Shown here: positions 1-35,523 of the stretch, in pieces
How the letters are laid out: each line of letters begins with the position of its first letter
Numbering within the stretch: the stretch's first letter is position 1
Source of the DNA: Astrocystis sublimbata
Lineage: Eukaryota > Ascomycota > Sordariomycetes > Xylariales > Xylariaceae
NCBI GenBank assembly: GCA_022453515.1
Contig: JAJNNY010000124.1
Location: forward strand, 1 to 37,434
Direction: 5' to 3'
DNA length: 37,434 bases
Notes under the pieces: generated by a model
Database searches by the model: none
What the model was told of the DNA's origin: nothing
The model's input: only the letters and a program-made list of their open reading frames with translations
Position numbers and translations under genes: made by a program

Positions 1-652
1 TGTCAGATGCACTGTGCCAGCCTTGGTGCGCGCTCTACTGAGTGCCTCTTTAGGTGCCTACCTAGGTACCTAGGTAGTACTCGTACGCCCGACTACCTAG
101 GCGAGAACTACCTGCCCTCCCTCGCCCTCCATAGCATAAACACGCCATCCATAACAGGTTAGATGCATCCGCTACTGGAGCGTCATAAATTGGCCAAGCA
201 CAGCAATCACATCACTGGCTCGACTGGAAGCGAATTAATTGAGAAATACTAGGTAGTACTTAGGCCCTTCGCCCCCACACCCGGCGAGATCTTCAATTGC
301 AAGTTGCATCATCTTGTCTTGGGGGCCGCTTGTTATCCATGTGCACACAACCCGCCTGCGCCTACGAGCCTCATACGATACACGCCCTCGCACGCCTACT
401 GCTCGACTGTTACTGACTAGGTAGGTAGCAGGCAGCCCTACAGGGCTCACTCGAGAACGCCCTCCCTGTCGACTGATACGCACGATATGTACCGAGTGTG
501 TTGTCCGATTCTGATACTGGATACTGGCGAGACTGGGGCACGCGAGGCACGCGCATGGGGAACCAACAGAGATCTTCACGCCACCTAAGCACCAGGTACT
601 ACCTACCTACTGTCCAGTGAACCGGCGAACCAGCGAGCCAGCCGAGCCAGCC
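1..652. other. Upstream region of the ALKBH6-like gene
   Basis: No convincing gene is present. The stretch holds repeated TACCTAGGTA-type motifs at 53-80, near 91-101, 413-425 and 595-611. It is a promoter or leader candidate for the gene starting at 653. The mirrored copy is 18338-18989. Confidence 0.6.
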
Positions 653-1438
653 ATGGTGGCCGAGGCTGAGGCGACGAGAATGGACGCACTGCCTGGGCTC
701 TCGCTGCCCCCGTCCCTCGAAGGCGCACGTGTGCACCATTTGCCCTCCGCCGCTTTCTACATCTCCGAATTCATCACCGAAGCCGAAGAGAAACTCATCC
801 TCGACAAGATAGTCTCCGCCCCAAAGCCGCGGTGGAAGCAGCTGAGCCGCCGTCGACTGCAGGCTTGGCCCTCGGACCTCATCAATAACAAGTTGGTGGA
901 TGCGCCCCTGCCACCATGGCTCGAAGCCCCCATCGTTACCCGCTTGCAGTCGCTTCCTCTCGATCAAGGCCGCCCGCACATATTCGCCGACAGCCCCCAT
1001 ACACGCCCAAACCACGTGCTCATCAACGAATATCCGCCCGGTGTTGGTATAATGCCTCACAAGGACGGCGCCGCCTATCATCCCATCGTCTGCACAGTCA
1101 GCTTGGCTGCTTCTATATGCTTGAACATACATGAGATGAGGGGCGACGGCACGCTCAACAAGGACCCGTCTTGGAGGATCTTGCAAGAACCTAGAAGCCT
1201 TCTAATCACAACCGCGGATCTTTACACAGACTTTCTCCATGGCATCGATGACATTACGGAAGACACGCAGCTTTCGGAAGAGACAGTAGCGAATTGGTCC
1301 TTACTGCGACCGAGTTCACTATTCCACAGCGGCCGAAACATGCGCCAGACGCGAACTAGTCTTACCTACCGCGACGTACTAAATGTTTCAAAGCTGGATA
1401 AAAAGCTCGGTCTTCTGCTTGGCCAGCGGAAATGGTAG
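653..1438 (+). CDS. ALKBH6-like Fe(II)/2-oxoglutarate dioxygenase (left arm)
   Basis: A 261-aa AlkB-fold dioxygenase, intronless. Members of the family use Fe(II) and 2-oxoglutarate for oxidative demethylation; the substrate of the ALKBH6 branch is not settled. The iron triad is visible as H136-x-D138 (in MPHKDG) and H197 (in FLHGIDD). The 2-oxoglutarate-binding RxxxxxR motif is R234 to R240 (RTSLTYR). A YPPGVGIMPHKDG-type segment matches the ALKBH6 group. I start at the ATG at 653, in GCCATGG context; the frame is open back to a GTG at 617, which is not a credible fungal start. The gene converges on the polyprenol reductase with 21 bp between the stop codons, so their 3' UTRs must overlap. 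Its inverted copy is 17552-18337. Confidence 0.9.
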   Translation: MVAEAEATRMDALPGLSLPPSLEGARVHHLPSAAFYISEFITEAEEKLILDKIVSAPKPRWKQLSRRRLQAWPSDLINNKLVDAPLPPWLEAPIVTRLQSLPLDQGRPHIFADSPHTRPNHVLINEYPPGVGIMPHKDGAAYHPIVCTVSLAASICLNIHEMRGDGTLNKDPSWRILQEPRSLLITTADLYTDFLHGIDDITEDTQLSEETVANWSLLRPSSLFHSGRNMRQTRTSLTYRDVLNVSKLDKKLGLLLGQRKW

Positions 1439-1459
1439 ACTCGCCTACGAAGGCCAAAG

Positions 1460-2503
1460 CTAAAACAACAGCGGTATCATCTTCCATTTCCCTCGCACGC
1501 CGTCGCCGAACTTCTCGCTATACCACAGCTTGGTCCCGTTCGCAGTGACGCCTAGATTGACCGAGATAAACAAGCATGCGAGTATCAGAGTCCGGTTGTA
1601 CAACAGGCCTTCGGGAGCCGCCAATACCGCCATCGACAAGTAGATCAGGCATTCACAAGTATAGTGTGGGGAAACCAAGTACCGAAACATGCCCTCGTCT
1701 GGAAGCGAGTACTTCTTCAACCCAGCAAGATACCGATGGCATCGATATTGCATAAACCACGCTGCGAGAAACACGGAGCTGGCAATGATCGATTTTGGAG
1801 GCGGAAACTCGAGACCTAGACAGCTTGGGCCTGAACATTGTATCGCCCCTGCGTCCAGGTCAATACACGGTGAGGAATCTCGTAGGGGGCACAGCAACTC
1901 ACTGGATCCCTCGATCCATACAGCTACACTTGTGCATAAGTAGAAGCCGTTTCCAAGTAGCCAATGGATAATCCACATGCTAGAGGACGATGGTCGTAGG
2001 ATAGCCAGGCACTCATACAGCCGCCTCGCTCCCTGCAGGCCCATCAGAAGCCAAGCCAGAAAAACCTGGCTCATAGTCATGGATGGCAATGCGCCTTTGG
2101 CAAGCTGATGCTGAACAATGAGCTGCAATACTGCTCCATTGGTGGCGAGCTGGGTCGCCCAGAATATCGTGCAACCCAAGGAGAGAATGTAGAAGTGAAT
2201 GAACCAAGAATGTGGAATCTGGCCCACCGACGTGAACCCACGTATGAGACGATAGAAAACCCCCGCGTTGGCATCGTCCTCAGGCTCCCGGTCGCTAACA
2301 ACGCGGTCTTTCGAGCTCTTTGGAGATGCGGTAGCAGTATCGCGACAACTACGAGCACCATATTGTGTCAGTAGTCGCTGGGTCGTCTCTGGCACTGCGG
2401 CGACCGCTAGCACGGCGGCTGCGCTCAGCACGTAGAACAGCTGGCAGATTTCTGTCGGGCTAAGGGCCATCGCTTTGTCGAAGACTGAGGCAGCCACCTC
2501 CAT
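1460..2503 (-). CDS. Polyprenol reductase, DFG10/SRD5A3 type (left arm)
   Basis: A 347-aa multi-pass ER membrane protein of the steroid 5-alpha-reductase family. DFG10/SRD5A3 members take part in making dolichol from polyprenol, and dolichol carries N-glycan precursors. Seen here: hydrophobic helices along the length, an LQGARRLYECL segment mid-protein, and a C-terminal reductase domain with EGMFRYLVSPHYTCE (about residues 269-284) and an NGTKLWYSEKFG stretch, ending WKMIPLLF as these enzymes do. I chose the ATG at 2503 because the longer frame begins with GTG at 2542. A hydrophilic insert near residues 205-230 (CPLRDSSPCIDLDAG) could be an unspliced in-frame intron or a species-specific loop. 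The inverted copy is 16487-17530. Confidence 0.9.
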   Translation of the reverse strand: MEVAASVFDKAMALSPTEICQLFYVLSAAAVLAVAAVPETTQRLLTQYGARSCRDTATASPKSSKDRVVSDREPEDDANAGVFYRLIRGFTSVGQIPHSWFIHFYILSLGCTIFWATQLATNGAVLQLIVQHQLAKGALPSMTMSQVFLAWLLMGLQGARRLYECLAILRPSSSSMWIIHWLLGNGFYLCTSVAVWIEGSSELLCPLRDSSPCIDLDAGAIQCSGPSCLGLEFPPPKSIIASSVFLAAWFMQYRCHRYLAGLKKYSLPDEGMFRYLVSPHYTCECLIYLSMAVLAAPEGLLYNRTLILACLFISVNLGVTANGTKLWYSEKFGDGVRGKWKMIPLLF

Positions 2504-5500
2504 GTTGTTTGTATTCGGCGACTCGGCGAATTGGTGAATCACTGACGACTGAGGGGCATGTTGGTGGGTTGACTCGCCTCAGTTTTGACCTTTTTACATG
2601 GTGGAAGCCATGGGGAACTGCCACGAGCAATCTACTTTACCTAACCCAACTCAAGTAGCTTAAATGCATGTATGCATTTAAAACGTGTATTGACTGGCCG
2701 CCCAAGGTACCTAATCTAACCATGTCAACAACCTTTCTTTTTTTCATCTCTGGGGAGATTTCTTCTCCAACCTGCAAGCTACCTTTGTCATTGTATTTTC
2801 AAGGGGCAATTCTATATAATGATCTAATTCATCACGTTGTAACTGTGAGGTTCGCAACGAAGCGTAAGGGGTAGGAGACAGGAAACACTGTTGGTGTATT
2901 AGTTTATAGGATGGCTTGCGACTGACGCTGCCCTTAGGTTGAACGTGACCTCGACGGCTTTGTAATGACACCTCGGAGGCATATATAGATATATATATAC
3001 GTACTTGTTGCCGTTGCCGTTGCTGTTCCCGTTCCTCATATCAAGTCATATGTCCGCTATGATTTGGCGTTTGAAACACCCAGTCCAATCACGCATTCCC
3101 ATCAATAGCAGCCTAACTCCGCTCTCTCTGTCTCTGGCGAGTAACTCCTTGTTTCGCAATGACTTTTGGCACACCTCTCGGGTGAAGAACCACAGATGGA
3201 GTCATCACCATCCTTGATTACGTGTAGCCAAGATAAAGCGTGCCGATATGAGCGGTATTCCAGTAACGTCCGACTTACTTAGGACAAATGTTCTCTTCCT
3301 AAGCTTACTATGTTTTGCTCGTCGTTTAATCGTGCTACTTGTTCGAGCAGCATTCCTTGTATTATATCATGCGCAGGAGTACCTAATAGCTATTACCCTG
3401 ATATACTAGCTTCATGAGTTGCGAGGGTTGGCATATTCATCTCTGATATGAAATGAATCAATACTTCTGGTCCCAAAAGCCATTTCTATTTACTGAGCGC
3501 GTAGTTCGATGTATCTCACCGCTGTTAACTTTAAGCAGTTCCTCAAGGGAGAACGGACGAGAGAGCGGGAGGAGACTAGCTCGCCACTCTTACCTATAAT
3601 ATACACTCAGATGTTCTACAACAAGGTTTGGGCAAGAAAAACTTGTTGCTAGGTAGATGAAATGTTCCTGTTCATTCGCTGCCCACTAGAAGTTACAACA
3701 AAAAATACAGTTCAGCAGACAGGGTTGGACAGGAAGTCACCAGCGTTGAGATTTTACCAAGCCCACACACATCCTGGTGTTTTCATTTTGATCACTAACA
3801 TGTAGGAAGAGTTGATTACTAGGGAAAGCTTTACTTATACTAGTCAGGTTTTTTTGATTGATTATAACAATTACACATTACTAAGTATTAGTTGGTGTCC
3901 CATTCATGGTTGCAGTTATGTGACGGCACAGAAGGCTGCCAACTTGAAGATTCAATCATCAGTGGCCACGAGTAATCATCAGGAAGCTGTGACATTGTAG
4001 ATTCTTGTACGTTTGTGGCCTATATGCCTTAGCAACAAATCAACCAAATTCAATATAATGAACGGATAAGGTGTTCTACTTGAGTCTCTATGTAATATGT
4101 GTACCATGACCTCCCATCACACATTCGTAGTGTTTACCTAAGCCTTTGGGCATATCACATTCAACAACAACAAAAACAATAATAATATGACTTTACATTT
4201 TGTTGCGGGTTGGTGCGTTCTTACAAGACTCCGTGTGCGTCTCGAGGCACTGCTGCGTAAAGGTCCATGGGCAAGCTCTGTCACGATTCACTCGCGTGAT
4301 CGCATGTAGAAGTGATGCAAACCATCAAGCTACCAGACTGGATACCACCCTGCTGTTAGTATCATTGTGGCCTGGTATTGAATCCTAGTTTCCGACAGGC
4401 GCGCGTCAAGAAGTCCTCGATGTCAAGGTCATACCAGTGGCATGGTAAGAATATAATCCCAACACGCACTTGAGGACAACTGACTGTACTGATGTCCACG
4501 ACATTCTGATTATAACCTTTATTGGAGTAATTGAATGGCTTCCGAGTCCCATGAATCGCCCAAAAAATGCCTTTATCGAGAGTAAATAAGAACAACCCTC
4601 CCAACCCTGCAGGTTAACCTGTAGCTCTGTTTTTTAACATCGATCACGACTTCCTATAAAAACTATATTGAGAGTGGAAGTAGCGTGAGCTCGTATGCTC
4701 TGAGAAATTCGTTTAAAACACGAAGCTAACAATAGGTGGCGGCGAGCTGCCTAAAGATGGATGAAAGCTAAACATAGGTCAGATCCCAGTTTTCCATGAC
4801 ATATTGAATTTATATTGACGGCTGGACATCAAGCAACCGATAATTTATGCTTTTTCCAACATGGAACTTACTGAGTACTGGTCGAGTGCATTCACCATGC
4901 ATGGCATGCTGATGGATACGCTGAACCTGCTCAATATACTACGACACATTGCCCACGACCACGATCTTGTAGTATCAATTCCCATGACTGTATACTTCCT
5001 AGCTGGTGTGGTTCATTTAAATCATTTGAATGAAATGAAATGACTACGTATGCCTAGAAAGTTCCCGTTGAGGTATTCGAGATACATACCATCATTCATG
5101 CTAATAGCAACCTTTTCTTTATATCATTGGTCCAAACCCGTTATGCAGATACTGGTCTGTAATGATCCTTTAAAGAAGCTGTATGAGAGAGCGTACGATA
5201 GCTACCATATAGTATGGACATATACCCATTGGTGTATCTTCGAATTTTCTCGATGAACAGTGTTGTTCATGAGCAATGGCCTTCCACCAAGGTGACGGAC
5301 GACCTCGCAGTTCAGGGAGTTAGAGTGCTGTAGCCAGACACGTCTGAGGCCTGCCCAGGTGACATAGGTGGAACCCGCAGTGCCGGATAATCATCGGCTA
5401 ATTGCGGGGTTTGACATCATGTCTGATTTTCCTGGAGTGCCCCACATGCCGCTCTTGAGTCTTGAGTCCAAGGGACGGACCTACCTAGGTGAACACTGCT

Positions 5501-5599
5501 ATTGCTATCAATCACCCCAACCTCGAATCAACACCAGATCGACATCAAGCCAACATCACACTTTCATAGGAGCACATCGTGTTGCAGTATCTGGCAATC
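2504..5599. other. 3.1-kb gene-poor spacer (left arm)
   Basis: No supported gene. Reading frames are all 80 codons or shorter except one of 147 codons that runs through the DRG1 leader and its first introns. The spacer contains a short AT microsatellite at about 2981-3000, GTTGCC-type imperfect repeats at 3005-3035, a CAACAACAA/AATAATAAT tract at about 4163-4187 and ATTTGAATG repeats near 5013-5043. The last 100-200 bases are the probable DRG1 5' UTR. The mirrored copy is 13391-16486. Confidence 0.6.
2661..2680. repeat. 20-bp palindrome
   Basis: TAAATGCAT and ATGCATTTA flank a GT dinucleotide, giving 9-bp complementary arms. It lies about 160 bp upstream of the polyprenol reductase start, so it could be a dimeric regulator site or a chance A/T-rich palindrome. 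The mirrored copy is 16310-16329. Confidence 0.5.
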
Positions 5600-7072
5600 A
5601 TGTCGACAACTGTGGAGAAGGCAAGTATAAGACGAGGGTCGGATCGTTGTTGCTGGTATCGCTAACTGGTAAACAGATCAAGGAGATCGAGTCCGAGGTA
5701 TGTGTTCTCGGGTGCATTTTGAGTTGGCGAATGTGTGCTGATCGGCTGCATGATCACAGATGGCTCGGACTCAAAAAAACAAAGCTACTTCGTTCCATCT
5801 TGGCCAGTTGAAAGCAAAATTAGCGAAGCTGAAGCGGGAGTTGCTCACGCCGTCTACCGGTGGTGGCAGCGGCGGCGGAGCGGGTTTCGATGTCGCCAGA
5901 ACAGGTGTTGCTAGTGTTGGATTCATCGGATTTCCATCCGTCGGGAAAAGTACACTCATGAGTAGACTCACAGGCCAGCATTCCGAGGCGGCAGCGTATG
6001 AGTTCACGACCCTGACATCTGTGCCTGGCCAGGTCATGTACAACGGTACGCCTCGCCAATGGGATTATCATTACTCTTTTGCTGATTTTAAATATTTGGA
6101 TAGGTGCTCCACTGCAAATGATCGACCTTCCTGGTATCATTGAAGGAGCTAAAGACGGCCGAGGTCGTGGTCGCCAGGTCATTGCCGTTGCCAAGACATG
6201 CCATCTGATCTTCATAGTGTTGGATGTGAACAAGCCCTTAACAGACAAGCGAGTGATCGAGTCAGAATTAGAAGGGTTTGGAATCCGTATCAACAAAGAG
6301 CCACCGAACATCACTTTCAAGAAGAAGGACAAGGGTGGTCTCAATATCACGAGCACCCAGCCTTTAACCCACATCGACCACGACGAAATCAAGGCCGTGA
6401 TGAATGAGTACCGAATCAATTCGGCTGATATTGCTATTCGATGCGATGCAACCATCGACGACCTAATTGATGTGTTGGAAGCGAGAGGTCGCAGCTACAT
6501 ACCCGTTATCTACGTCCTGAACAAAATCGATGCTATAAGTATCGAGGAACTAGATCTTCTGTACCGGATTCCGAACGCTGTACCGATCAGCTCGGAACAT
6601 GGGTGGAATGTCGATGAGCTGATGGAAGTCATGTGCGTATTGGATGCGGTGTCATGAAGAAATTGGTGTATGCGCTGACCTCTTTTCTTCCAGGTGGCAA
6701 AAGTTGAAACTAGTACGGGTCTACACAAAACCAAAGGGGAAACTGCCGGACTATTCGCAACCCGTCGTACTACGTTCTACGAAGTGTACCGTGGAAGACT
6801 TCGTGAGTTGACGTTTCCAAAACCTGCGCCGTGAATGAGCATTGTGGTTAACCGAAGATTTCCAAAGTGTAATGCAATCCATCGAACCATCACCGAGCAG
6901 TTCAAAAACGCAATCGTTTACGGCAAATCAGTAAAACACCAACCGCAACGTGTGGGGTTGTCGCACGAGCTGGCAGATGAGGACATTGGTAAATACACAC
7001 TGCATCCACCCGGCGACTGATTGCTGAGCATAAACTAATGTGTATGCCATAGTCACGATTGTGAAGAAATGA
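5600..7072 (+). CDS. RBG1: DRG1/Rbg1 developmentally regulated GTP-binding protein (left arm)
   Basis: A 368-aa TRAFAC-class GTPase that in yeast and animals binds a DFRP/Tma46 partner and ribosomes to assist translation. I join seven exons: 5600-5620, 5677-5697, 5760-6045, 6104-6632, 6694-6802, 6868-6988 and 7053-7072. This gives 369 codons including the stop, the normal family length. G1 is GFPSVGKS (71-78), G3 is DLPG (117-120), G4 is NKID (249-252), G5 is near ISS (271-273), and a TGS domain follows from about 287. The N-terminus [29 protein letters not shown] identifies DRG1, not DRG2. Intron 1 (5621-5676) has a GC donor (GCAAGT); the nearby GT would break the frame. Exon 2 is only 21 nt. 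The inverted copy is 11918-13390. Confidence 0.96.
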
Positions 7073-8864
7073 TTTGTCCTTGTTCGGGACAACTGCCTAT
7101 TGCGCCTCGGATTGCGTGCTAAGGGGGTGTTTGGCCAATGCCGACATTGGTCAGTCACGCAGGTTTACGTGGTACAATATGATCAACTCGCGTAGTACAC
7201 AGCGCGTCTATGTGACACCAGTATAGTTGGAATGTACTCTGCGGATGTTGTGCGTCTGCACAAGGCTGGTGGACGGCTTGCATGACCAATACACCATGAC
7301 CATGGCTGCTTGCTTGTTCGGCGGTTCCAGGGACGAGGTGGCAGCCGATGCGGCAGGCCACAGCAGATTGTCAGTGTCAATTGCTCCATCTGGCAAAGAA
7401 CTGAGATATTGCAGGGCGGGCATCATCACGTGAAAGTCAGTCATATGCGACAGCATCTGGGATAGAGGATGGCTCATAGAGAGAATGGGATGGTGTCTCA
7501 CATCGTGTTCCTATCACAGCCCGAACGGGAATGGGTGAGCACTGTCGACATAGTGCCGACCCAATACAATGCTACTCAATATGGTATTGGAGGTGCACCT
7601 CCGTTGCATGGGAAGCCTGGAGAATTGTGCTCGAAAATGGCAATTGGGCACGAAAGGTTACATTATAATACGAGAGGTCTGGTCTATCCGCATGAATAAA
7701 TCACAATCCTGCGCGCGGCGAACATCCGGTCTCGGTTTTCTCACTTGAGCTCTCTAATCGTACCTTCTCAAACCTGCTTCCACCTCTGCCTGGTATTTGA
7801 ATCATACACAAAACGCTTGGTGACTGCACTGACTGGGAGCTACAACATGCATCGCGGCATCGTCATATTTGAAGTAAGTATTGTGGGGCGGTGCAGCACC
7901 CCAAATTGTGCCGCATCTTACAATGATGAAATGATCAGTGCACCCAGGCGAGCCCAGGTAGACGAGGACCTGCAGCAACCGGGCCACGTCTGCTGCGGCC
8001 GACTTTCCCGACAAGCGTGTGGGATGCAGGGCCAGCTCTTAGTGTGCTGTATAAGAGCCGTTGAGACACGCTCCACAACACCACCTGGCTGGCATACGGT
8101 GTGCTAGTACGTGGAGAAGAGCGCGCGACGAAATCAGCAGAGTGAAGTGAGACATGAATATTGCCGGTCGTGGGCTTGGGCTCATCCTATCGTTGCACGT
8201 AAACGATCGGAGCCTCTGGATGACCACCTGGGCGTCCAGACCAGTCAACGTCCAGAGTGTCCCTCCAACAAAAGGCCGAGGGTAGACTGCCCCCTGCTCC
8301 AGCCTTTCAGAGCTCTGCTGTAGCCGCCGGCCAATGTCCACAATATCCTGCTACCTGACCTACTATGTACAATCGTGGAGAACGTTCCATACGATTTTGG
8401 GGAAGGATGGGGCGCTCTCGTTCAATCCTATCCAACAGCTGATATTTCTTGGCTCAACGATCTCGGTAGTCTTGACTAAAGCATTTGTCGCGCCTCGTCC
8501 GTTGCTCGGCTAGTCGGCGATTAGACTCGAACAAGTTTTTCTCGCTGAAAGTAGAAGCTGGTTGTGCAATTTAGGTTTTTATCTTGTGTCTCGATAGCGT
8601 GACTTCGGTAATAAAACGCGAAGTCGCAATATCCCGATGAGCCATTTCTACCGGATCTCATGTGTCCACACTGCGTACCTTACGAGCACTACACTGAACG
8701 CTCTGAGTTGTGGTGTTTGGCGATACTCCATACAGTGCTGCCGCATGGGAAAGCGCCTGCCAATTGGTAAGCTGTGGACGAGCCTGGGGACCTCCAGGAT
8801 TCCCTGCTTACTCGGTTTTCCGATTTACTTACTTCTAAGTACCTAGTCACTTATGGTAGTGTAC
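7073..8864. other. Region without a confident gene (left arm)
   Basis: Several 60-120-codon frames occur on both strands, none with recognisable motifs. The best minus-strand frames (7208-7501, 7802-8014, 8039-8341) look mildly protein-like but begin with non-ATG codons or are interrupted by stops, and I could not join them by convincing introns. A decayed gene next to the repeat core is possible. The first few hundred bases include the DRG1 3' UTR. The mirrored copy is 10126-11917. Confidence 0.5.
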
Positions 8865-8935
8865 CAGGGTTGGCAAATTAGTACGTACTAATGTTATACT
8901 ACACTTTAGTATTTTAGTGACTACAGTGTAGTACG

Positions 8936-9142
8936 TGTCACGGCGAGCGTACTGAGAAGCTGGGACAAAGCCGGCAGCAGCAGCTAATACTCTATTGACG
9001 AGAATATCAAGACTAAGGAGAGAAAGAGAAGAGAGAACTAGATACAGCGAGACAGTGTCTCTCTATATACGTATTGCCCTATGCGAATCCTTTCCTCATC
9101 TAGTAGCAGCTTAGTCATGTGATAGGTCTACTGGCCGTGACA
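8936..9142. mobile_element. Solo LTR (left arm)
   Basis: This 207-bp element begins TGTCACGGC and ends GCCGTGACA, giving 9-bp inverted ends with the canonical TG...CA termini of an LTR. It is flanked on both sides by GTACG (8931-8935 and 9143-9147), a 5-bp target-site duplication typical of LTR retrotransposon integration. No internal retroelement sequence or second LTR is adjacent, so it is a recombination remnant. It sits inside TAGTA-rich, probably older repeat sequence, which marks a nested insertion. Confidence 0.88.
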
Positions 9143-9236
9143 GTACGAGTACATACTATAATTAGTACTGATCTTAGGTACTACACTTTAGTATGTACTA
9201 AATATAGTATATTAATAGTGACTAATTGTAGTATTT

Positions 9237-9753
9237 ATAGTATTTATATTTTTGAAAAAAAAAAATTTAGAAAAAATTAAATTAAAGCAAAAATAAAAAA
9301 GTTTTGGAATTTTTTTTAATAAATATATTAAAGTTATTAATATTAAACTATTTTTTCTTATTTTTTTTAAGCAAGTATTACAATCTTCCTAATTTTTTAA
9401 AAAATTATTTTTATTTTTTAAATTATTTGCTCCACTTTTAAGTAAAACATAATAATGCTTACATAATTATTACTAAGAAAAATACTACAAATACTCAGTT
9501 GTAGTATTTTTCTTAGTAATAAATTATGTAAGCATATTATGTTTTACTTAAAAGTGGAGCAAATAATTTTAAAAAATAAAATAATTTTTTTAAAAAATTA
9601 GGAAGATTGTAATACTTGCTTAAAAAAAATAAGAAAAAATAGTTTTAATATTAATAACTTTAATATATTTATTAAAAAAAATTCCAAACTTTTTTATTTT
9701 TGCTTTAATTTAATTTTTTCTAAATTTTTTTTTTTCAAAAATATAAATACTAT
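9237..9753. repeat. A/T-rich palindrome core with 8-nt spacer
   Basis: This stretch is almost entirely A and T, with many homopolymer runs of 4 to 11 bases. It is the hairpin centre: 9481-9490 pairs with 9499-9508 across the spacer 9491-9498 (ATACTCAG). Reading both halves outward, seven run-length differences of one base separate them: T4/T3, A3/A4, A6/A7, T5/T4, A3/A4, AATAATGC/AATATGC and AATTAT/AATTTAT. The composition fits a heavily RIP-mutated repeat, which is an inference. No coding frame is present. Confidence 0.9.
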
Positions 9754-9847
9754 AAATACTACAATTAGTCACTATTAATATACTATATTTAGTACATACT
9801 AAAGTGTAGTACCTAAGATCAGTACTAATTATAGTATGTACTCGTAC

Positions 9848-10054
9848 TGTCACGGCCAGTAGACCTATCACATGACTAAGCTGCTACTAGATGAGGAAAG
9901 GATTCGCATAGGGCAATACGTATATAGAGAGACACTGTCTCGCTGTATCTAGTTCTCTCTTCTCTTTCTCTCCTTAGTCTTGATATTCTCGTCAATAGAG
10001 TATTAGCTGCTGCTGCCGGCTTTGTCCCAGCTTCTCAGTACGCTCGCCGTGACA
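9848..10054. mobile_element. Solo LTR (right-arm copy)
   Basis: This is the exact inverted copy of the LTR at 8936-9142, again starting TGTCACGGC, ending GCCGTGACA and bounded by the 5-bp duplication (CGTAC on this strand). I found no difference between the two copies, so the palindrome arose after the LTR inserted. Confidence 0.88.
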
Positions 10055-10125
10055 CGTACTACACTGTAGTCACTAAAATACTAAAGTGTAGTATAACATT
10101 AGTACGTACTAATTTGCCAACCCTG

Positions 10126-11917
10126 GTACACTACCATAAGTGACTAGGTACTTAGAAGTAAGTAAATCGGAAAACCGAGTAAGCAGGGAATCCTGGAGGT
10201 CCCCAGGCTCGTCCACAGCTTACCAATTGGCAGGCGCTTTCCCATGCGGCAGCACTGTATGGAGTATCGCCAAACACCACAACTCAGAGCGTTCAGTGTA
10301 GTGCTCGTAAGGTACGCAGTGTGGACACATGAGATCCGGTAGAAATGGCTCATCGGGATATTGCGACTTCGCGTTTTATTACCGAAGTCACGCTATCGAG
10401 ACACAAGATAAAAACCTAAATTGCACAACCAGCTTCTACTTTCAGCGAGAAAAACTTGTTCGAGTCTAATCGCCGACTAGCCGAGCAACGGACGAGGCGC
10501 GACAAATGCTTTAGTCAAGACTACCGAGATCGTTGAGCCAAGAAATATCAGCTGTTGGATAGGATTGAACGAGAGCGCCCCATCCTTCCCCAAAATCGTA
10601 TGGAACGTTCTCCACGATTGTACATAGTAGGTCAGGTAGCAGGATATTGTGGACATTGGCCGGCGGCTACAGCAGAGCTCTGAAAGGCTGGAGCAGGGGG
10701 CAGTCTACCCTCGGCCTTTTGTTGGAGGGACACTCTGGACGTTGACTGGTCTGGACGCCCAGGTGGTCATCCAGAGGCTCCGATCGTTTACGTGCAACGA
10801 TAGGATGAGCCCAAGCCCACGACCGGCAATATTCATGTCTCACTTCACTCTGCTGATTTCGTCGCGCGCTCTTCTCCACGTACTAGCACACCGTATGCCA
10901 GCCAGGTGGTGTTGTGGAGCGTGTCTCAACGGCTCTTATACAGCACACTAAGAGCTGGCCCTGCATCCCACACGCTTGTCGGGAAAGTCGGCCGCAGCAG
11001 ACGTGGCCCGGTTGCTGCAGGTCCTCGTCTACCTGGGCTCGCCTGGGTGCACTGATCATTTCATCATTGTAAGATGCGGCACAATTTGGGGTGCTGCACC
11101 GCCCCACAATACTTACTTCAAATATGACGATGCCGCGATGCATGTTGTAGCTCCCAGTCAGTGCAGTCACCAAGCGTTTTGTGTATGATTCAAATACCAG
11201 GCAGAGGTGGAAGCAGGTTTGAGAAGGTACGATTAGAGAGCTCAAGTGAGAAAACCGAGACCGGATGTTCGCCGCGCGCAGGATTGTGATTTATTCATGC
11301 GGATAGACCAGACCTCTCGTATTATAATGTAACCTTTCGTGCCCAATTGCCATTTTCGAGCACAATTCTCCAGGCTTCCCATGCAACGGAGGTGCACCTC
11401 CAATACCATATTGAGTAGCATTGTATTGGGTCGGCACTATGTCGACAGTGCTCACCCATTCCCGTTCGGGCTGTGATAGGAACACGATGTGAGACACCAT
11501 CCCATTCTCTCTATGAGCCATCCTCTATCCCAGATGCTGTCGCATATGACTGACTTTCACGTGATGATGCCCGCCCTGCAATATCTCAGTTCTTTGCCAG
11601 ATGGAGCAATTGACACTGACAATCTGCTGTGGCCTGCCGCATCGGCTGCCACCTCGTCCCTGGAACCGCCGAACAAGCAAGCAGCCATGGTCATGGTGTA
11701 TTGGTCATGCAAGCCGTCCACCAGCCTTGTGCAGACGCACAACATCCGCAGAGTACATTCCAACTATACTGGTGTCACATAGACGCGCTGTGTACTACGC
11801 GAGTTGATCATATTGTACCACGTAAACCTGCGTGACTGACCAATGTCGGCATTGGCCAAACACCCCCTTAGCACGCAATCCGAGGCGCAATAGGCAGTTG
11901 TCCCGAACAAGGACAAA
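10126..11917. other. Region without a confident gene (right arm)
   Basis: This is the inverted copy of 7073-8864, with the same short frames and no recognisable product. Confidence 0.5.
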
Positions 11918-13390
11918 TCATTTCTTCACAATCGTGACTATGGCATACACATTAGTTTATGCTCAGCAATCAGTCGCCGGGTGGATGCAGTGTGTATTTA
12001 CCAATGTCCTCATCTGCCAGCTCGTGCGACAACCCCACACGTTGCGGTTGGTGTTTTACTGATTTGCCGTAAACGATTGCGTTTTTGAACTGCTCGGTGA
12101 TGGTTCGATGGATTGCATTACACTTTGGAAATCTTCGGTTAACCACAATGCTCATTCACGGCGCAGGTTTTGGAAACGTCAACTCACGAAGTCTTCCACG
12201 GTACACTTCGTAGAACGTAGTACGACGGGTTGCGAATAGTCCGGCAGTTTCCCCTTTGGTTTTGTGTAGACCCGTACTAGTTTCAACTTTTGCCACCTGG
12301 AAGAAAAGAGGTCAGCGCATACACCAATTTCTTCATGACACCGCATCCAATACGCACATGACTTCCATCAGCTCATCGACATTCCACCCATGTTCCGAGC
12401 TGATCGGTACAGCGTTCGGAATCCGGTACAGAAGATCTAGTTCCTCGATACTTATAGCATCGATTTTGTTCAGGACGTAGATAACGGGTATGTAGCTGCG
12501 ACCTCTCGCTTCCAACACATCAATTAGGTCGTCGATGGTTGCATCGCATCGAATAGCAATATCAGCCGAATTGATTCGGTACTCATTCATCACGGCCTTG
12601 ATTTCGTCGTGGTCGATGTGGGTTAAAGGCTGGGTGCTCGTGATATTGAGACCACCCTTGTCCTTCTTCTTGAAAGTGATGTTCGGTGGCTCTTTGTTGA
12701 TACGGATTCCAAACCCTTCTAATTCTGACTCGATCACTCGCTTGTCTGTTAAGGGCTTGTTCACATCCAACACTATGAAGATCAGATGGCATGTCTTGGC
12801 AACGGCAATGACCTGGCGACCACGACCTCGGCCGTCTTTAGCTCCTTCAATGATACCAGGAAGGTCGATCATTTGCAGTGGAGCACCTATCCAAATATTT
12901 AAAATCAGCAAAAGAGTAATGATAATCCCATTGGCGAGGCGTACCGTTGTACATGACCTGGCCAGGCACAGATGTCAGGGTCGTGAACTCATACGCTGCC
13001 GCCTCGGAATGCTGGCCTGTGAGTCTACTCATGAGTGTACTTTTCCCGACGGATGGAAATCCGATGAATCCAACACTAGCAACACCTGTTCTGGCGACAT
13101 CGAAACCCGCTCCGCCGCCGCTGCCACCACCGGTAGACGGCGTGAGCAACTCCCGCTTCAGCTTCGCTAATTTTGCTTTCAACTGGCCAAGATGGAACGA
13201 AGTAGCTTTGTTTTTTTGAGTCCGAGCCATCTGTGATCATGCAGCCGATCAGCACACATTCGCCAACTCAAAATGCACCCGAGAACACATACCTCGGACT
13301 CGATCTCCTTGATCTGTTTACCAGTTAGCGATACCAGCAACAACGATCCGACCCTCGTCTTATACTTGCCTTCTCCACAGTTGTCGACAT
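11918..13390 (-). CDS. RBG1: DRG1/Rbg1 GTP-binding protein (right-arm copy)
   Basis: This is the inverted duplicate of the gene at 5600-7072, encoding the same 368-aa GTPase. Exons on this strand are 13390-13370, 13313-13293, 13230-12945, 12886-12358, 12296-12188, 12122-12002 and 11937-11918. All splice sites, including the GC donor of intron 1 and the 21-nt second exon, are retained, and the translated segments are identical. DRG1 is normally single-copy and highly conserved, so a second identical copy here argues for a very recent duplication or an assembly error. Confidence 0.95.
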
Positions 13391-16300
13391 GATTGCCAGA
13401 TACTGCAACACGATGTGCTCCTATGAAAGTGTGATGTTGGCTTGATGTCGATCTGGTGTTGATTCGAGGTTGGGGTGATTGATAGCAATAGCAGTGTTCA
13501 CCTAGGTAGGTCCGTCCCTTGGACTCAAGACTCAAGAGCGGCATGTGGGGCACTCCAGGAAAATCAGACATGATGTCAAACCCCGCAATTAGCCGATGAT
13601 TATCCGGCACTGCGGGTTCCACCTATGTCACCTGGGCAGGCCTCAGACGTGTCTGGCTACAGCACTCTAACTCCCTGAACTGCGAGGTCGTCCGTCACCT
13701 TGGTGGAAGGCCATTGCTCATGAACAACACTGTTCATCGAGAAAATTCGAAGATACACCAATGGGTATATGTCCATACTATATGGTAGCTATCGTACGCT
13801 CTCTCATACAGCTTCTTTAAAGGATCATTACAGACCAGTATCTGCATAACGGGTTTGGACCAATGATATAAAGAAAAGGTTGCTATTAGCATGAATGATG
13901 GTATGTATCTCGAATACCTCAACGGGAACTTTCTAGGCATACGTAGTCATTTCATTTCATTCAAATGATTTAAATGAACCACACCAGCTAGGAAGTATAC
14001 AGTCATGGGAATTGATACTACAAGATCGTGGTCGTGGGCAATGTGTCGTAGTATATTGAGCAGGTTCAGCGTATCCATCAGCATGCCATGCATGGTGAAT
14101 GCACTCGACCAGTACTCAGTAAGTTCCATGTTGGAAAAAGCATAAATTATCGGTTGCTTGATGTCCAGCCGTCAATATAAATTCAATATGTCATGGAAAA
14201 CTGGGATCTGACCTATGTTTAGCTTTCATCCATCTTTAGGCAGCTCGCCGCCACCTATTGTTAGCTTCGTGTTTTAAACGAATTTCTCAGAGCATACGAG
14301 CTCACGCTACTTCCACTCTCAATATAGTTTTTATAGGAAGTCGTGATCGATGTTAAAAAACAGAGCTACAGGTTAACCTGCAGGGTTGGGAGGGTTGTTC
14401 TTATTTACTCTCGATAAAGGCATTTTTTGGGCGATTCATGGGACTCGGAAGCCATTCAATTACTCCAATAAAGGTTATAATCAGAATGTCGTGGACATCA
14501 GTACAGTCAGTTGTCCTCAAGTGCGTGTTGGGATTATATTCTTACCATGCCACTGGTATGACCTTGACATCGAGGACTTCTTGACGCGCGCCTGTCGGAA
14601 ACTAGGATTCAATACCAGGCCACAATGATACTAACAGCAGGGTGGTATCCAGTCTGGTAGCTTGATGGTTTGCATCACTTCTACATGCGATCACGCGAGT
14701 GAATCGTGACAGAGCTTGCCCATGGACCTTTACGCAGCAGTGCCTCGAGACGCACACGGAGTCTTGTAAGAACGCACCAACCCGCAACAAAATGTAAAGT
14801 CATATTATTATTGTTTTTGTTGTTGTTGAATGTGATATGCCCAAAGGCTTAGGTAAACACTACGAATGTGTGATGGGAGGTCATGGTACACATATTACAT
14901 AGAGACTCAAGTAGAACACCTTATCCGTTCATTATATTGAATTTGGTTGATTTGTTGCTAAGGCATATAGGCCACAAACGTACAAGAATCTACAATGTCA
15001 CAGCTTCCTGATGATTACTCGTGGCCACTGATGATTGAATCTTCAAGTTGGCAGCCTTCTGTGCCGTCACATAACTGCAACCATGAATGGGACACCAACT
15101 AATACTTAGTAATGTGTAATTGTTATAATCAATCAAAAAAACCTGACTAGTATAAGTAAAGCTTTCCCTAGTAATCAACTCTTCCTACATGTTAGTGATC
15201 AAAATGAAAACACCAGGATGTGTGTGGGCTTGGTAAAATCTCAACGCTGGTGACTTCCTGTCCAACCCTGTCTGCTGAACTGTATTTTTTGTTGTAACTT
15301 CTAGTGGGCAGCGAATGAACAGGAACATTTCATCTACCTAGCAACAAGTTTTTCTTGCCCAAACCTTGTTGTAGAACATCTGAGTGTATATTATAGGTAA
15401 GAGTGGCGAGCTAGTCTCCTCCCGCTCTCTCGTCCGTTCTCCCTTGAGGAACTGCTTAAAGTTAACAGCGGTGAGATACATCGAACTACGCGCTCAGTAA
15501 ATAGAAATGGCTTTTGGGACCAGAAGTATTGATTCATTTCATATCAGAGATGAATATGCCAACCCTCGCAACTCATGAAGCTAGTATATCAGGGTAATAG
15601 CTATTAGGTACTCCTGCGCATGATATAATACAAGGAATGCTGCTCGAACAAGTAGCACGATTAAACGACGAGCAAAACATAGTAAGCTTAGGAAGAGAAC
15701 ATTTGTCCTAAGTAAGTCGGACGTTACTGGAATACCGCTCATATCGGCACGCTTTATCTTGGCTACACGTAATCAAGGATGGTGATGACTCCATCTGTGG
15801 TTCTTCACCCGAGAGGTGTGCCAAAAGTCATTGCGAAACAAGGAGTTACTCGCCAGAGACAGAGAGAGCGGAGTTAGGCTGCTATTGATGGGAATGCGTG
15901 ATTGGACTGGGTGTTTCAAACGCCAAATCATAGCGGACATATGACTTGATATGAGGAACGGGAACAGCAACGGCAACGGCAACAAGTACGTATATATATA
16001 TCTATATATGCCTCCGAGGTGTCATTACAAAGCCGTCGAGGTCACGTTCAACCTAAGGGCAGCGTCAGTCGCAAGCCATCCTATAAACTAATACACCAAC
16101 AGTGTTTCCTGTCTCCTACCCCTTACGCTTCGTTGCGAACCTCACAGTTACAACGTGATGAATTAGATCATTATATAGAATTGCCCCTTGAAAATACAAT
16201 GACAAAGGTAGCTTGCAGGTTGGAGAAGAAATCTCCCCAGAGATGAAAAAAAGAAAGGTTGTTGACATGGTTAGATTAGGTACCTTGGGCGGCCAGTCAA

Positions 16301-16486
16301 TACACGTTTTAAATGCATACATGCATTTAAGCTACTTGAGTTGGGTTAGGTAAAGTAGATTGCTCGTGGCAGTTCCCCATGGCTTCCACCATGTAAAAAG
16401 GTCAAAACTGAGGCGAGTCAACCCACCAACATGCCCCTCAGTCGTCAGTGATTCACCAATTCGCCGAGTCGCCGAATACAAACAAC
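13391..16486. other. 3.1-kb gene-poor spacer (right arm)
   Basis: This is the inverted copy of 2504-5599. It has the same microsatellites, the 20-bp palindrome at 16310-16329 and no supported gene. Confidence 0.6.
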
Positions 16487-17530
16487 ATGGAGGTGGCTGC
16501 CTCAGTCTTCGACAAAGCGATGGCCCTTAGCCCGACAGAAATCTGCCAGCTGTTCTACGTGCTGAGCGCAGCCGCCGTGCTAGCGGTCGCCGCAGTGCCA
16601 GAGACGACCCAGCGACTACTGACACAATATGGTGCTCGTAGTTGTCGCGATACTGCTACCGCATCTCCAAAGAGCTCGAAAGACCGCGTTGTTAGCGACC
16701 GGGAGCCTGAGGACGATGCCAACGCGGGGGTTTTCTATCGTCTCATACGTGGGTTCACGTCGGTGGGCCAGATTCCACATTCTTGGTTCATTCACTTCTA
16801 CATTCTCTCCTTGGGTTGCACGATATTCTGGGCGACCCAGCTCGCCACCAATGGAGCAGTATTGCAGCTCATTGTTCAGCATCAGCTTGCCAAAGGCGCA
16901 TTGCCATCCATGACTATGAGCCAGGTTTTTCTGGCTTGGCTTCTGATGGGCCTGCAGGGAGCGAGGCGGCTGTATGAGTGCCTGGCTATCCTACGACCAT
17001 CGTCCTCTAGCATGTGGATTATCCATTGGCTACTTGGAAACGGCTTCTACTTATGCACAAGTGTAGCTGTATGGATCGAGGGATCCAGTGAGTTGCTGTG
17101 CCCCCTACGAGATTCCTCACCGTGTATTGACCTGGACGCAGGGGCGATACAATGTTCAGGCCCAAGCTGTCTAGGTCTCGAGTTTCCGCCTCCAAAATCG
17201 ATCATTGCCAGCTCCGTGTTTCTCGCAGCGTGGTTTATGCAATATCGATGCCATCGGTATCTTGCTGGGTTGAAGAAGTACTCGCTTCCAGACGAGGGCA
17301 TGTTTCGGTACTTGGTTTCCCCACACTATACTTGTGAATGCCTGATCTACTTGTCGATGGCGGTATTGGCGGCTCCCGAAGGCCTGTTGTACAACCGGAC
17401 TCTGATACTCGCATGCTTGTTTATCTCGGTCAATCTAGGCGTCACTGCGAACGGGACCAAGCTGTGGTATAGCGAGAAGTTCGGCGACGGCGTGCGAGGG
17501 AAATGGAAGATGATACCGCTGTTGTTTTAG
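16487..17530 (+). CDS. Polyprenol reductase, DFG10/SRD5A3 type (right-arm copy)
   Basis: This is an identical inverted copy of 1460-2503, coding for the same 347-aa membrane reductase. The ATG at 16487 (ACAACATGG) is the start; the frame extends upstream only to a GTG at 16448. The reductase-domain segment EGMFRYLVSPHYTCE and the C-terminus WKMIPLLF are intact. The gene converges on the ALKBH6-like copy with 21 bp between stops, as in the left arm. Confidence 0.9.
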   Translation: MEVAASVFDKAMALSPTEICQLFYVLSAAAVLAVAAVPETTQRLLTQYGARSCRDTATASPKSSKDRVVSDREPEDDANAGVFYRLIRGFTSVGQIPHSWFIHFYILSLGCTIFWATQLATNGAVLQLIVQHQLAKGALPSMTMSQVFLAWLLMGLQGARRLYECLAILRPSSSSMWIIHWLLGNGFYLCTSVAVWIEGSSELLCPLRDSSPCIDLDAGAIQCSGPSCLGLEFPPPKSIIASSVFLAAWFMQYRCHRYLAGLKKYSLPDEGMFRYLVSPHYTCECLIYLSMAVLAAPEGLLYNRTLILACLFISVNLGVTANGTKLWYSEKFGDGVRGKWKMIPLLF

Positions 17531-17551
17531 CTTTGGCCTTCGTAGGCGAGT

Positions 17552-18337
17552 CTACCATTTCCGCTGGCCAAGCAGAAGACCGAGCTTTTTATCCAGCTTT
17601 GAAACATTTAGTACGTCGCGGTAGGTAAGACTAGTTCGCGTCTGGCGCATGTTTCGGCCGCTGTGGAATAGTGAACTCGGTCGCAGTAAGGACCAATTCG
17701 CTACTGTCTCTTCCGAAAGCTGCGTGTCTTCCGTAATGTCATCGATGCCATGGAGAAAGTCTGTGTAAAGATCCGCGGTTGTGATTAGAAGGCTTCTAGG
17801 TTCTTGCAAGATCCTCCAAGACGGGTCCTTGTTGAGCGTGCCGTCGCCCCTCATCTCATGTATGTTCAAGCATATAGAAGCAGCCAAGCTGACTGTGCAG
17901 ACGATGGGATGATAGGCGGCGCCGTCCTTGTGAGGCATTATACCAACACCGGGCGGATATTCGTTGATGAGCACGTGGTTTGGGCGTGTATGGGGGCTGT
18001 CGGCGAATATGTGCGGGCGGCCTTGATCGAGAGGAAGCGACTGCAAGCGGGTAACGATGGGGGCTTCGAGCCATGGTGGCAGGGGCGCATCCACCAACTT
18101 GTTATTGATGAGGTCCGAGGGCCAAGCCTGCAGTCGACGGCGGCTCAGCTGCTTCCACCGCGGCTTTGGGGCGGAGACTATCTTGTCGAGGATGAGTTTC
18201 TCTTCGGCTTCGGTGATGAATTCGGAGATGTAGAAAGCGGCGGAGGGCAAATGGTGCACACGTGCGCCTTCGAGGGACGGGGGCAGCGAGAGCCCAGGCA
18301 GTGCGTCCATTCTCGTCGCCTCAGCCTCGGCCACCAT
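17552..18337 (-). CDS. ALKBH6-like dioxygenase (right-arm copy)
   Basis: This is an identical inverted copy of 653-1438: 261 aa with HxD at 136/138, H197 and the RTSLTYR motif at 234-240. The only arm differences I found (18426 and 18428 against 564 and 562) lie about 90 bp upstream of its ATG, outside the coding sequence. Confidence 0.9.
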   Translation of the reverse strand: MVAEAEATRMDALPGLSLPPSLEGARVHHLPSAAFYISEFITEAEEKLILDKIVSAPKPRWKQLSRRRLQAWPSDLINNKLVDAPLPPWLEAPIVTRLQSLPLDQGRPHIFADSPHTRPNHVLINEYPPGVGIMPHKDGAAYHPIVCTVSLAASICLNIHEMRGDGTLNKDPSWRILQEPRSLLITTADLYTDFLHGIDDITEDTQLSEETVANWSLLRPSSLFHSGRNMRQTRTSLTYRDVLNVSKLDKKLGLLLGQRKW

Positions 18338-19290
18338 GGCTGGCTCGGCTGGCTCGCTGGTTCGCCGGTTCACTGGACAGTAGGTAGGTAGTACCTGGTG
18401 CTTAGGTGGCGTGAAGATCTCTGTTTGGTCCCCATGCGCGTGCCTCGCGTGCCCCAGTCTCGCCAGTATCCAGTATCAGAATCGGACAACACACTCGGTA
18501 CATATCGTGCGTATCAGTCGACAGGGAGGGCGTTCTCGAGTGAGCCCTGTAGGGCTGCCTGCTACCTACCTAGTCAGTAACAGTCGAGCAGTAGGCGTGC
18601 GAGGGCGTGTATCGTATGAGGCTCGTAGGCGCAGGCGGGTTGTGTGCACATGGATAACAAGCGGCCCCCAAGACAAGATGATGCAACTTGCAATTGAAGA
18701 TCTCGCCGGGTGTGGGGGCGAAGGGCCTAAGTACTACCTAGTATTTCTCAATTAATTCGCTTCCAGTCGAGCCAGTGATGTGATTGCTGTGCTTGGCCAA
18801 TTTATGACGCTCCAGTAGCGGATGCATCTAACCTGTTATGGATGGCGTGTTTATGCTATGGAGGGCGAGGGAGGGCAGGTAGTTCTCGCCTAGGTAGTCG
18901 GGCGTACGAGTACTACCTAGGTACCTAGGTAGGCACCTAAAGAGGCACTCAGTAGAGCGCGCACCAAGGCTGGCACAGTGCATCTGACACCGTCATTGTC
19001 GCTGTGCCGTTCCCTCGCTTGCTAGGCTCGCCAGGCCACTGGGCATGAGTATAAGTGTACGAAGACGTGTGAGGACTGAAGACACATCCGCATAAGTATG
19101 GGTATGTACTTACATACGAAAAGGATCCGCAAATATTCGTGCTTAGACAAATAGTAGTATCTACTAGTAAGTATTTGCATATGTACTATGTACGCGAACA
19201 TGAAGCCGCCGTCAGACGATCGAGGCAAGGTCGCTGAGTGGCGACGATGGATTCTTCCACTTCTGCTCTGCAAGGTAAAGGGAAGACAGG

Positions 19291-19320
19291 GCTCGACAGG
19301 GCTCGACAGGGCTCGACAGG
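19291..19320. repeat. Tandem repeat, 10-bp unit x3
   Basis: Three perfect copies of GCTCGACAGG, preceded by a partial unit (GACAGG) and followed by GC. Confidence 0.95.
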
Positions 19321-20643: not shown

Positions 20644-20692
20644 CTGGCTGGGCTGGGCTGGGCTGGGTACTGGCTGCTGGCTGCTGGCTGCT
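20644..20692. repeat. GGGCT and GGCTGCT tandem runs
   Basis: About four GGGCT-type pentamers followed by about three GGCTGCT heptamers. This is a simple low-complexity tract in the upstream region of the ankyrin gene. Confidence 0.85.
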
Positions 20693-21201
20693 CTCTGTTT
20701 CTGCTAACAAGTTCCGCCTGCAAATCGCTGGGGCCAGCCAATACACCTCCCGCTCTGCTCTGCTCTTCTCTCCTCGTGCTGGTGGTCTTGTGCATCCATC
20801 CTGCTCTTCTCCCCGAGCACTCCTCCATCCTTCTCTCACCTACCACAGACTCGCAGACTACCATTCTCCAATCCGCTCTCGTTACTGATCAGAAGATACC
20901 CTACCCAACTCCCACCCGCCCGCACGTTTCAATAACAATAATAGTACGCCCTCCCCCAGTGCATCTCGACCGTAGTCTGAACATAGCTCCCCTTTCGCCC
21001 GGCACCCGCTACCCACCCTCTCGTCCTGCTGTCTTCGACTGCTACACTATTCGACTCGCAACCGGCCGCGCCGACCTACAGTGACTCGAGATCGACTACA
21101 CGAGAAGTCTGCCACGGCACAAATCCACAGGCTACATACAACTCCGGGCCCTAACCGCCGCCGCCATCATCTCTAGCCTACCACGCCGACGAGTGGCCAT
21201 C

Positions 21202-21237
21202 ATGGTGTACTGTATGAGAGCCTGGTATATGAAATAA
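21202..21237 (+). promoter_or_regulatory. 11-codon uORF before the ankyrin gene
   Basis: An ATG in good context (CATCATGG) opens an 11-codon frame ending in TAA at 21237. Immediately after it, a second out-of-frame ATG at 21238 opens a 67-codon frame that overlaps the main start at 21243. Scanning ribosomes would meet both before the main ATG, which suggests translational control or a different true start. Whether the leader is transcribed from here is not known. Confidence 0.5.
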
Positions 21238-21242
21238 ATGCT

Positions 21243-35485: not shown

Positions 35486-35523
<38 letters not shown>

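What the first reader, a model, noticed from the sequence alone, without database searches (positions are those of the whole stretch)
1..18989. Nearly perfect 19-kb palindrome carrying duplicate housekeeping genes
Two arms of about 9.5 kb mirror each other around 9495 with an 8-nt spacer, and only two mismatches were found outside the A/T core. Three conserved genes, including normally single-copy DRG1, are duplicated exactly. This is either a fold-back assembly or library chimera seeded at the A/T-rich hairpin, or a very recent inverted duplication such as a hairpin-capped break that replicated into a palindrome. The arm reaching exactly base 1 is what a contig-end fold-back would produce.
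Basis: partly seen in the sequence, partly recalled or inferred. Interest (0 to 1): 0.9.

Follow-up and report, generated by a model that had tools for sequence, protein, structure and literature searches.

The report
Fold-back sequencing artefact, not genomic palindrome
The mirror-image 19-kb stretch is very probably a sequencing or assembly mistake in which a contig turned back on itself inside an A/T-rich transposon remnant, so the "duplicated" housekeeping genes are most likely single-copy.

Summary
The palindrome is real in the letters: 1-18989 mirrors itself around 9495, with an 8-nt spacer and one small patch of difference (562/564) outside the A/T core. It is an artefact. The window is a whole 37,434-bp contig (C29) of a fungal assembly, probably Astrocystis sublimbata. 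The 810,606-bp contig C35 holds the arm and the single-copy pieces compared at 100%, yet begins with its own, incompatible fold-back of this locus: another turning point, and a mirror arm running 816 bases past C29's 18989/18990 "boundary". The turn lies inside half of a hAT-like element whose nested insertion is mirrored with it. The other half and a different flank are on C85/C109; C85 folds back too. At a second copy of the element C176 reads straight through while C148 and C84 fold back. Seven contigs, perhaps eight, have such fold-backs, each reaching a contig end, arms 0.04-10.1 kb. C29 turned at a native 9-bp inverted repeat, readable unfolded in C85. Best mechanism: strands snapped back at A/T-rich hairpins during DNA handling or library making, giving palindromic reads. 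Confidence 0.96.

The parts
9499..18989 (+). Proximal arm, contiguous with the single-copy sequence 18990-37434; taken as the genuine copy of the locus
   Evidence: C35:18359-21359 = window 18000-21000 and C35:10559-18459 = window 10200-18100, both 100%
1..9490 (-). Distal arm, mirror copy of 9499-18989; artefactual
   Evidence: Self-alignment; C35 carries a mirror arm of the same locus that ends elsewhere
9482..9507 (.). Turning point: stem ATACTACAA / loop ATACTCAG (9491-9498) / stem TTGTAGTAT; native 9-bp inverted repeat
   Evidence: Same stem with a 10-nt loop at C85:595-622, where the sequence goes on unfolded (AAGCC...)
9240..9750 (.). A/T-rich core, 13% G+C; apart from 562/564 all differences between the arms lie at 9305-9498 (and mirror places)
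8865..9490 (+). Half of a hAT-like terminal-inverted-repeat element (TIR CAGGGTTGGCAAATTAGT at 8865-8882), cut off by the fold
   Evidence: TIR pattern; complete relative with 8-bp target duplication CTATGTAG in C176
9499..10125 (-). The same element half in the proximal arm (TIR at 10108-10125)
8936..9142 (+). Nested 207-bp insertion with 9-bp inverted ends (TGTCACGGC...GCCGTGACA), flanked by GTACG at 8931-8935 and 9143-9147
   Evidence: Copies without the surrounding element in C127, C113, C124 at 98.1-99.5%; uninterrupted site in C176
9848..10054 (-). The nested insertion at the exactly mirrored place
5760..6633 (+). DRG-type GTPase gene pieces (MMR_HSR1 in 5760-6143; MMR_HSR1_Xtn at 6331-6633), mirror copy
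12357..12659 (-). DRG-type GTPase, MMR_HSR1_Xtn part, copy in the proximal arm
1463..2503 (-). Steroid_dh / polyprenal reductase type gene, mirror copy
16487..17527 (+). Steroid_dh / polyprenal reductase type gene, copy in the proximal arm
617..1438 (+). 2OG-Fe(II) oxygenase domain frame, mirror copy (proximal-arm frame 17552-18373, minus strand)
18990..37434 (+). Rest of the contig: ankyrin/KRIT1-type protein 21243-25124, DUF7593 25121-26005, ATG22 36555-37421 (-); its two ends also found in C35
   Evidence: window 21001-35999 not compared with C35 (one search was not scored)

Best explanation
C29 is a redundant contig ending in a fold-back artefact. SHOWN: the locus runs from the single-copy side through the proximal arm into an A/T-rich hAT-like element, and the contig turns back inside that element. 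The same locus is assembled again in C35 with another turn and another arm end. The far half of what is very probably the same element copy, with a different flank, is on C85/C109. INFERRED: DNA broke or a strand was displaced in the A/T-rich element; its 3' end snapped back on a native short inverted repeat (9 bp at C29's turn) and was extended or sealed, giving hairpin-capped molecules read first along one strand and then along the other. Such palindromic reads were laid down as contig ends. The arm ends where that molecule or read ended, so base 1 has no biological meaning. The genes of the arm are then single-copy.
For: (1) C35 (810,606 bp) matches C29 at 100% at 10200-18100, 18000-21000, 19141-20241 and 36000-37434 and starts with its own fold-back, C35:1-20164, centre about 10081, turning at a C29-equivalent of about 9340 instead of 9495; its mirror arm starts 816 bases further out than C29's and crosses 18989/18990. 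With the 7,901-base arm query, four matches were found: two in C29 and two in C35. (2) C85:1-627 is a fold-back of the other half: against C29's core its better arm has 1 mismatch and 11 gaps in 313 columns, while the copies in C176, C88, C146 and C84 show 23-33 mismatches and 20-32 gaps. C85 then runs into a different flank shared with C109. (3) At a second copy C176 reads straight through the element, with an exact 8-bp target duplication, while C148 (99.98% over the shared 4,997 bases) and C84 (99.5% over 5,215 columns) fold back at two different points. (4) The fold-backs found each reach a contig end: C29, C35, C84, C85, C2 and C48 at base 1, C148 at its last base, and a small one of 83 bases (90%) at the start of C13 (C48 by match coordinates only). 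(5) Arms: about 10.1 (C35), 9.5, 6.3, 3.6, 3.5, 1.7, 0.3 and 0.04 kb. (6) The nested 207-bp insertion sits at exactly mirrored places: copying, not two insertions. (7) A native 9-bp stem at C29's turn: 4 such stems (loop 3-12) in C85:307-740, none in the 18,445 bases of window 18990-37434. (8) Against C176 the mirror arms of C84 and C148 match less well (97.1% and 99.8%) than their proximal arms (99.5% and 99.98%).
Against: No reads or depth were available. No contig was found that reads straight through THIS copy of the element; that was seen only at the second copy, in one contig. The 8-bp target duplication expected to join C29's flank to C109's is imperfect (TAGTGTAC against TAGTTGTAC, one base extra), so pairing C29/C35 with C85/C109 rests mainly on core identity; and C35's own core, surely the same locus, differs from C29's by 7 mismatches and 17 gaps in 147 columns, so core identity is a noisy measure. 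Error is not confined to the mirror arms: in C35 the noisier side of the core is the proximal one; of 10 differing columns in C29's core, outside copies favour the proximal arm at 4, the distal at 2, and leave 4 unclear. The stem count of point 7 is not matched for composition: the C85 stretch is far richer in A/T. The fetched stretches were at most 10 kb, so longer arms could have been missed elsewhere. C29 and C35 are not identical throughout: their offset changes by 25 bases between 21000 and 36000. One survey (PMC12870357) found fold-back reads at 0.55-0.6% in nanopore genomic DNA but virtually none or 0.03% in its three PacBio samples; the platform of this assembly was not established.
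Confidence: 0.96

Rival explanations
1. A true, recent inverted duplication in the fungus: a break in the A/T-rich element was capped by a hairpin through snap-back and replicated into a palindrome.
For: The turn is at a native 9-bp inverted repeat in an A/T-rich element; fold-back priming at breaks is proposed for inverted duplications in yeast (PMC10622511, start of abstract in a search listing).
Against: C29 and C35 hold two incompatible palindromes of one locus; no sequence beyond the mirror arm is seen; the arms found end at contig ends and are at most about 10.1 kb; C85 folds back from the other side of what is very probably the same element copy, and the two turns overlap by about 300 bases, which one broken molecule would not give; a sister locus reads straight through in C176.
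Confidence: 0.02
2. A mixture in the culture: different nuclei carry different recent fold-backs at these elements, so the element is a fragile site in vivo and straight and folded versions coexist.
For: Several different turns at two loci of one element family plus a straight version. These calls do not by themselves exclude a mixture.
Against: In vivo events would be expected to run on to a telomere or a further junction (inference), but the arms found end at contig ends at 0.04-10.1 kb, as fragment or read length would give. A fold-back also occurs at another sequence (C2/C48).
Confidence: 0.02
3. Hairpins made by a hAT transposase at the flanks of the element when it is cut out.
For: The element has hAT-like ends and an 8-bp target duplication in C176; recalled, not from a call: hAT transposases make hairpins on flanking DNA.
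Against: The turns lie inside the element, about 100 to 630 bases from its end (C13 about 97, C148 about 141, C84 about 370, C35 and C85 about 400, C29 630), not at the junction of element and flank.
Confidence: 0.002

Closest known systems
Fold-back (palindromic) artefact reads in long-read sequencing, Breakinator study (PMC12870357; outline, Results and Discussion read)
   Same: Nearly perfect palindromic molecules, often with little sequence between the halves, recurrent at the same places, thought by those authors to arise in library preparation; in their K562 samples the sequence between halves was enriched in simple repeats, A runs among the commonest.
   Different: There seen as reads against a reference; here fixed into the ends of assembled contigs. 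They found virtually none to 0.03% in their three PacBio samples.
Artificial palindromes after whole-genome amplification, Pacasus study (PMC6218980; outline and Background read)
   Same: Polymerase runs back along its own product and makes inverted copies that harm assembly.
   Different: No evidence here on whether the DNA was amplified.
In vivo fold-back inverted duplication at breaks or inverted repeats in yeast (PMC10622511 and others; search listing only)
   Same: Snap-back as the proposed seed.
   Different: Needs a stable rearranged chromosome; here one locus has two incompatible palindromes, each ending at a contig end.

Membership tests
Long-read fold-back artefact | Second half maps to the same place on the other strand | tested here: met
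   (on the contig, not on reads)
Long-read fold-back artefact | Unfolded version of the locus exists in the same sample | tested here: inconclusive
   Met at the second copy (C176 against C148/C84). At this copy only the far half with its flank is seen, on C85/C109
Long-read fold-back artefact | Turn and arm length differ from molecule to molecule | tested here: met
   C29 against C35; C148 against C84
Long-read fold-back artefact | Seen in single reads, symmetric about the read's middle | not testable with these tools
   No reads held
Genomic inverted duplication | Novel junction to unrelated sequence at the outer end of the mirror arm | tested here: not met
   The mirror arm ends at base 1 of the contig in C29 and in C35, at different places of the locus
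Genomic inverted duplication | Doubled copy number | not testable with these tools
   No depth data
hAT-like non-autonomous element (the thing at the turn) | Matching terminal inverted repeats and an 8-bp target duplication | tested here: met
   C176: CAGGGTTGGCAAATTAGT at both ends, CTATGTAG on both sides. At the C29/C109 copy the duplication is imperfect. That these features mark hAT elements is recalled, not from a call
hAT-like non-autonomous element (the thing at the turn) | Transposase elsewhere that moves it | not tested
   No search made

The most novel reading that the evidence does not exclude
Non-autonomous hAT-like elements with A/T-rich, hairpin-prone interiors are real fragile sites in this fungus: in living mycelium some nuclei carry breaks capped by fold-back at these elements, and the assembly sampled several such molecules, with different turns, at two copies and from both sides of one.
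Probability: 0.03. Interest if true: 0.6.

Novelty: not a real feature. Interest (0 to 1): 0.1.

Why it matters
It is a warning about this assembly. Seven contigs of it, perhaps eight, carry inverted false ends, some contigs are redundant, and genes in the arms look duplicated. For the Steroid_dh gene two different gene models listed for a contig of 810,606 bases are in public protein sets, and each matches both arms of the window equally. Copy-number or synteny work that takes these contigs at face value would find false duplications. It also shows that A/T-rich element interiors can be where this artefact recurs.

Tried and rejected
Rejected: true palindrome (two incompatible versions of one locus); hAT-transposase hairpins (turns lie inside the element); two independent insertions of the nested element (mirrored to the base). 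Misleading result: the first own-genome DNA search with the arm (13 of 15 candidates scored) listed only repeat pieces and neither C35 nor C29 itself, so the arm seemed unique; the DRG-domain search and shorter DNA queries showed C35. A search with window 20900-36100 was not scored because the answer held too many letters, so the middle of the single-copy side was not compared with C35. Expected but not found: an exact 8-bp target duplication joining C29 to C109. That errors would lie only in the mirror arms was expected and is only partly true. The right flank of C176 was sought elsewhere and found only in C176. Papers: 'Astrocystis sublimbata' gave two papers in a listing, neither opened; a search on xylarialean genomes held 379 papers, of which the 20 listed show none clearly about this genome; so platform and DNA preparation remain unknown. 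One paper search returned nothing. No tRNA genes were found in the window.

Full report
Observation. The mirror symmetry is in the sequence as described. Positions 1-18989 align with their own reverse complement at 99.88% in one piece; outside the core the arms differ only at 562 and 564, and the remaining differences lie at 9305-9498, in an A/T-rich core (9240-9750, 13% G+C). The two mismatches amount to one shifted base; C35's mirror arm has the proximal arm's form. The spacer is 9491-9498. Each arm holds a Steroid_dh (polyprenal reductase type) gene, a 2OG-Fe(II) oxygenase domain and a DRG-type GTPase.

What the window is. It is the whole of contig C29, 37,434 bases, of a genome of 42.6 Mb in 189 contigs, so the arm that reaches base 1 reaches a contig end. 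The best protein match of the Steroid_dh gene is from Astrocystis sublimbata (Xylariaceae), and the longest contig listed for it has 810,606 bases, the exact length of C35; that the genome is this species is inferred from this.

The same locus twice. The domain MMR_HSR1_Xtn is found five times: twice in C29, twice in C35 and once in C122; whether the arm gene is DRG1 and the C122 gene DRG2 was not tested. The arm, window 10200-18100, has four matches, two in C29 and two in C35, all 100% as rounded. C35 also matches the single-copy side at 18000-21000, 19141-20241 and 36000-37434 at 100%. Window 21001-35999 was not compared (one search was not scored); the offset between the contigs changes by 25 bases there, so they are not identical throughout. 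C35 itself begins with a fold-back of this locus, but another one, C35:1-20164: bases 1-2500 of C35 read as window 19805 down to 17305, so its mirror arm starts 816 bases further out and runs straight across window 18989/18990. Its centre is near 10081, and its turn corresponds to about window 9330-9356, not 9495, with about 90 bases missing nearby. One locus cannot hold both palindromes. The 18989/18990 "junction" is continuous in C35.

The turning point. At 8865 an element starts with CAGGGTTGGCAAATTAGT. In C176 a complete relative has this end on both sides and the 8-bp target duplication CTATGTAG, as hAT-type elements do (recalled). In C29 only one half is present, followed by its mirror. 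A 207-bp insertion with 9-bp inverted ends (TGTCACGGC) and GTACG on both sides sits at 8936-9142 and again, mirrored, at 9848-10054; C127, C113 and C124 hold copies of it alone at 98.1-99.5%. The missing half is on C85: C85:297-622 matches the core and continues through the right end of the element, at 715, to another flank, shared with C109 at 100% over C109's last 522 bases and, as rounded, over 4,001 bases further in. Over the core C29 and C85 differ by 1 mismatch and 11 gaps in 313 columns with C85's better arm (5 and 12 with its other arm), while the copies in C176, C88, C146 and C84 show 23-33 mismatches and 20-32 gaps. C35's noisy core, surely the same locus, shows 7 mismatches and 17 gaps in 147 columns, so this measure has its limits. 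The flank duplication is imperfect: TAGTGTAC against TAGTTGTAC. C85 also folds back, at 1-627, about 300 bases short of C29's turn. At C29's own turn the unfolded C85 shows a native inverted repeat, ATACTACAA - AAATACTCAG - TTGTAGTAT. Four 9-bp stems with loops of 3-12 bases occur in C85:307-740, one of them at the turn, and none in the 18,445 bases of window 18990-37434; the two stretches differ much in A/T content, so this is no matched control.

The second copy as control. C176 goes straight through the element into another flank, which was found in no other contig. C148 shares its left flank at 99.98% over 4,997 bases and C84 at 99.5% over 5,215 columns, but both fold back, at different points. 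C148's fold-back reaches its last base. Thus in one assembly the same locus is seen straight once and folded twice.

How common. Of 26 loci of at least 2,000 bases examined for inverted self-matches at E 1e-10 (2 shorter ones left out), 7 had one: C85 (seen in two loci), C84, C148 and C2 at contig ends, and a short internal one of 86 bases at 80% in C146 (two loci), not a fold-back of a contig end. Of six contig starts picked without regard to the element (C1, C2, C3, C28, C30, C31; first 10 kb each) one, C2, folds back. C48 is a second version of C2 with a fold-back differing at the turn (letters of C48 not read). C13 begins with a fold-back of 83 bases at 90% in the element. C94 and C109 stop inside the element; no inverted match longer than 43 bases was found in C94's last 400 bases and none in C109's last 522. 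So fold-backs and contig breaks recur at this element family, but C2/C48 shows they are not confined to it. Many were found because the element led to them, so these are not rates. A full survey was not possible.

Mechanism. Best supported: molecules broke or were displaced in the A/T-rich interior, snapped back on short native inverted repeats, and were extended or sealed into hairpin-capped fragments; reading both strands gives a palindrome twice as long as the fragment. This explains arms of 0.04 to 10.1 kb that end at contig ends, and different turns at one locus. Steps shown: the fold, its variability, the native stem at C29's turn, the straight version at the second copy. Steps inferred: breakage, snap-back in vitro, and the assembler's use of such reads. 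Fold-back reads of this kind are described (PMC12870357, Results and Discussion read; PMC6218980, Background read). Against: the first of these found virtually none to 0.03% in three PacBio samples, and the platform here is unknown. Errors do not lie only in mirror arms: against C176 the mirror arms of C84 and C148 are the poorer ones, but in C35's core the proximal side is, and C29's core gives a mixed vote of 4 to 2 with 4 unclear.

Verdict. Not a genomic feature. The genes of the arm are most likely single-copy. The practical point is that the assembly carries false inverted ends and redundant contigs; two different gene models for the Steroid_dh gene (P0001, P0002), both listed with a contig of 810,606 bases, match both arms of the window equally.

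Noticed in passing
L024 (C2:1-7062) and C48:1-7131: Two contigs start at the same base with a fold-back of one locus that is not the hAT-like element; their turns differ and they match at 100% over 2,401 bases further in, so one of them is probably redundant.
   Followed up: partly
window 8936-9142: A 207-bp insertion with 9-bp inverted ends and a 5-bp flanking duplication GTACG; copies 98.1-99.5% alike at C127, C113 and C124 suggest recent movement of a small non-autonomous element.
   Followed up: partly
L033 (C13:1-139), L021 (C94 end), L034 (C109 end): Three more contigs, two of them over 500 kb, stop inside copies of the same hAT-like element; these elements look like a cause of breaks in this assembly.
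   Followed up: partly
L010 (C84) and L013 (C148) against L015 (C176): C84, C148 and C176 overlap over the same flank (99.5-99.98%), so they look like unmerged versions of one region.
   Followed up: partly
window 16487-17527: Public protein sets hold two different gene models for this gene with a contig of 810,606 bases, perhaps one for each arm.
   Followed up: partly
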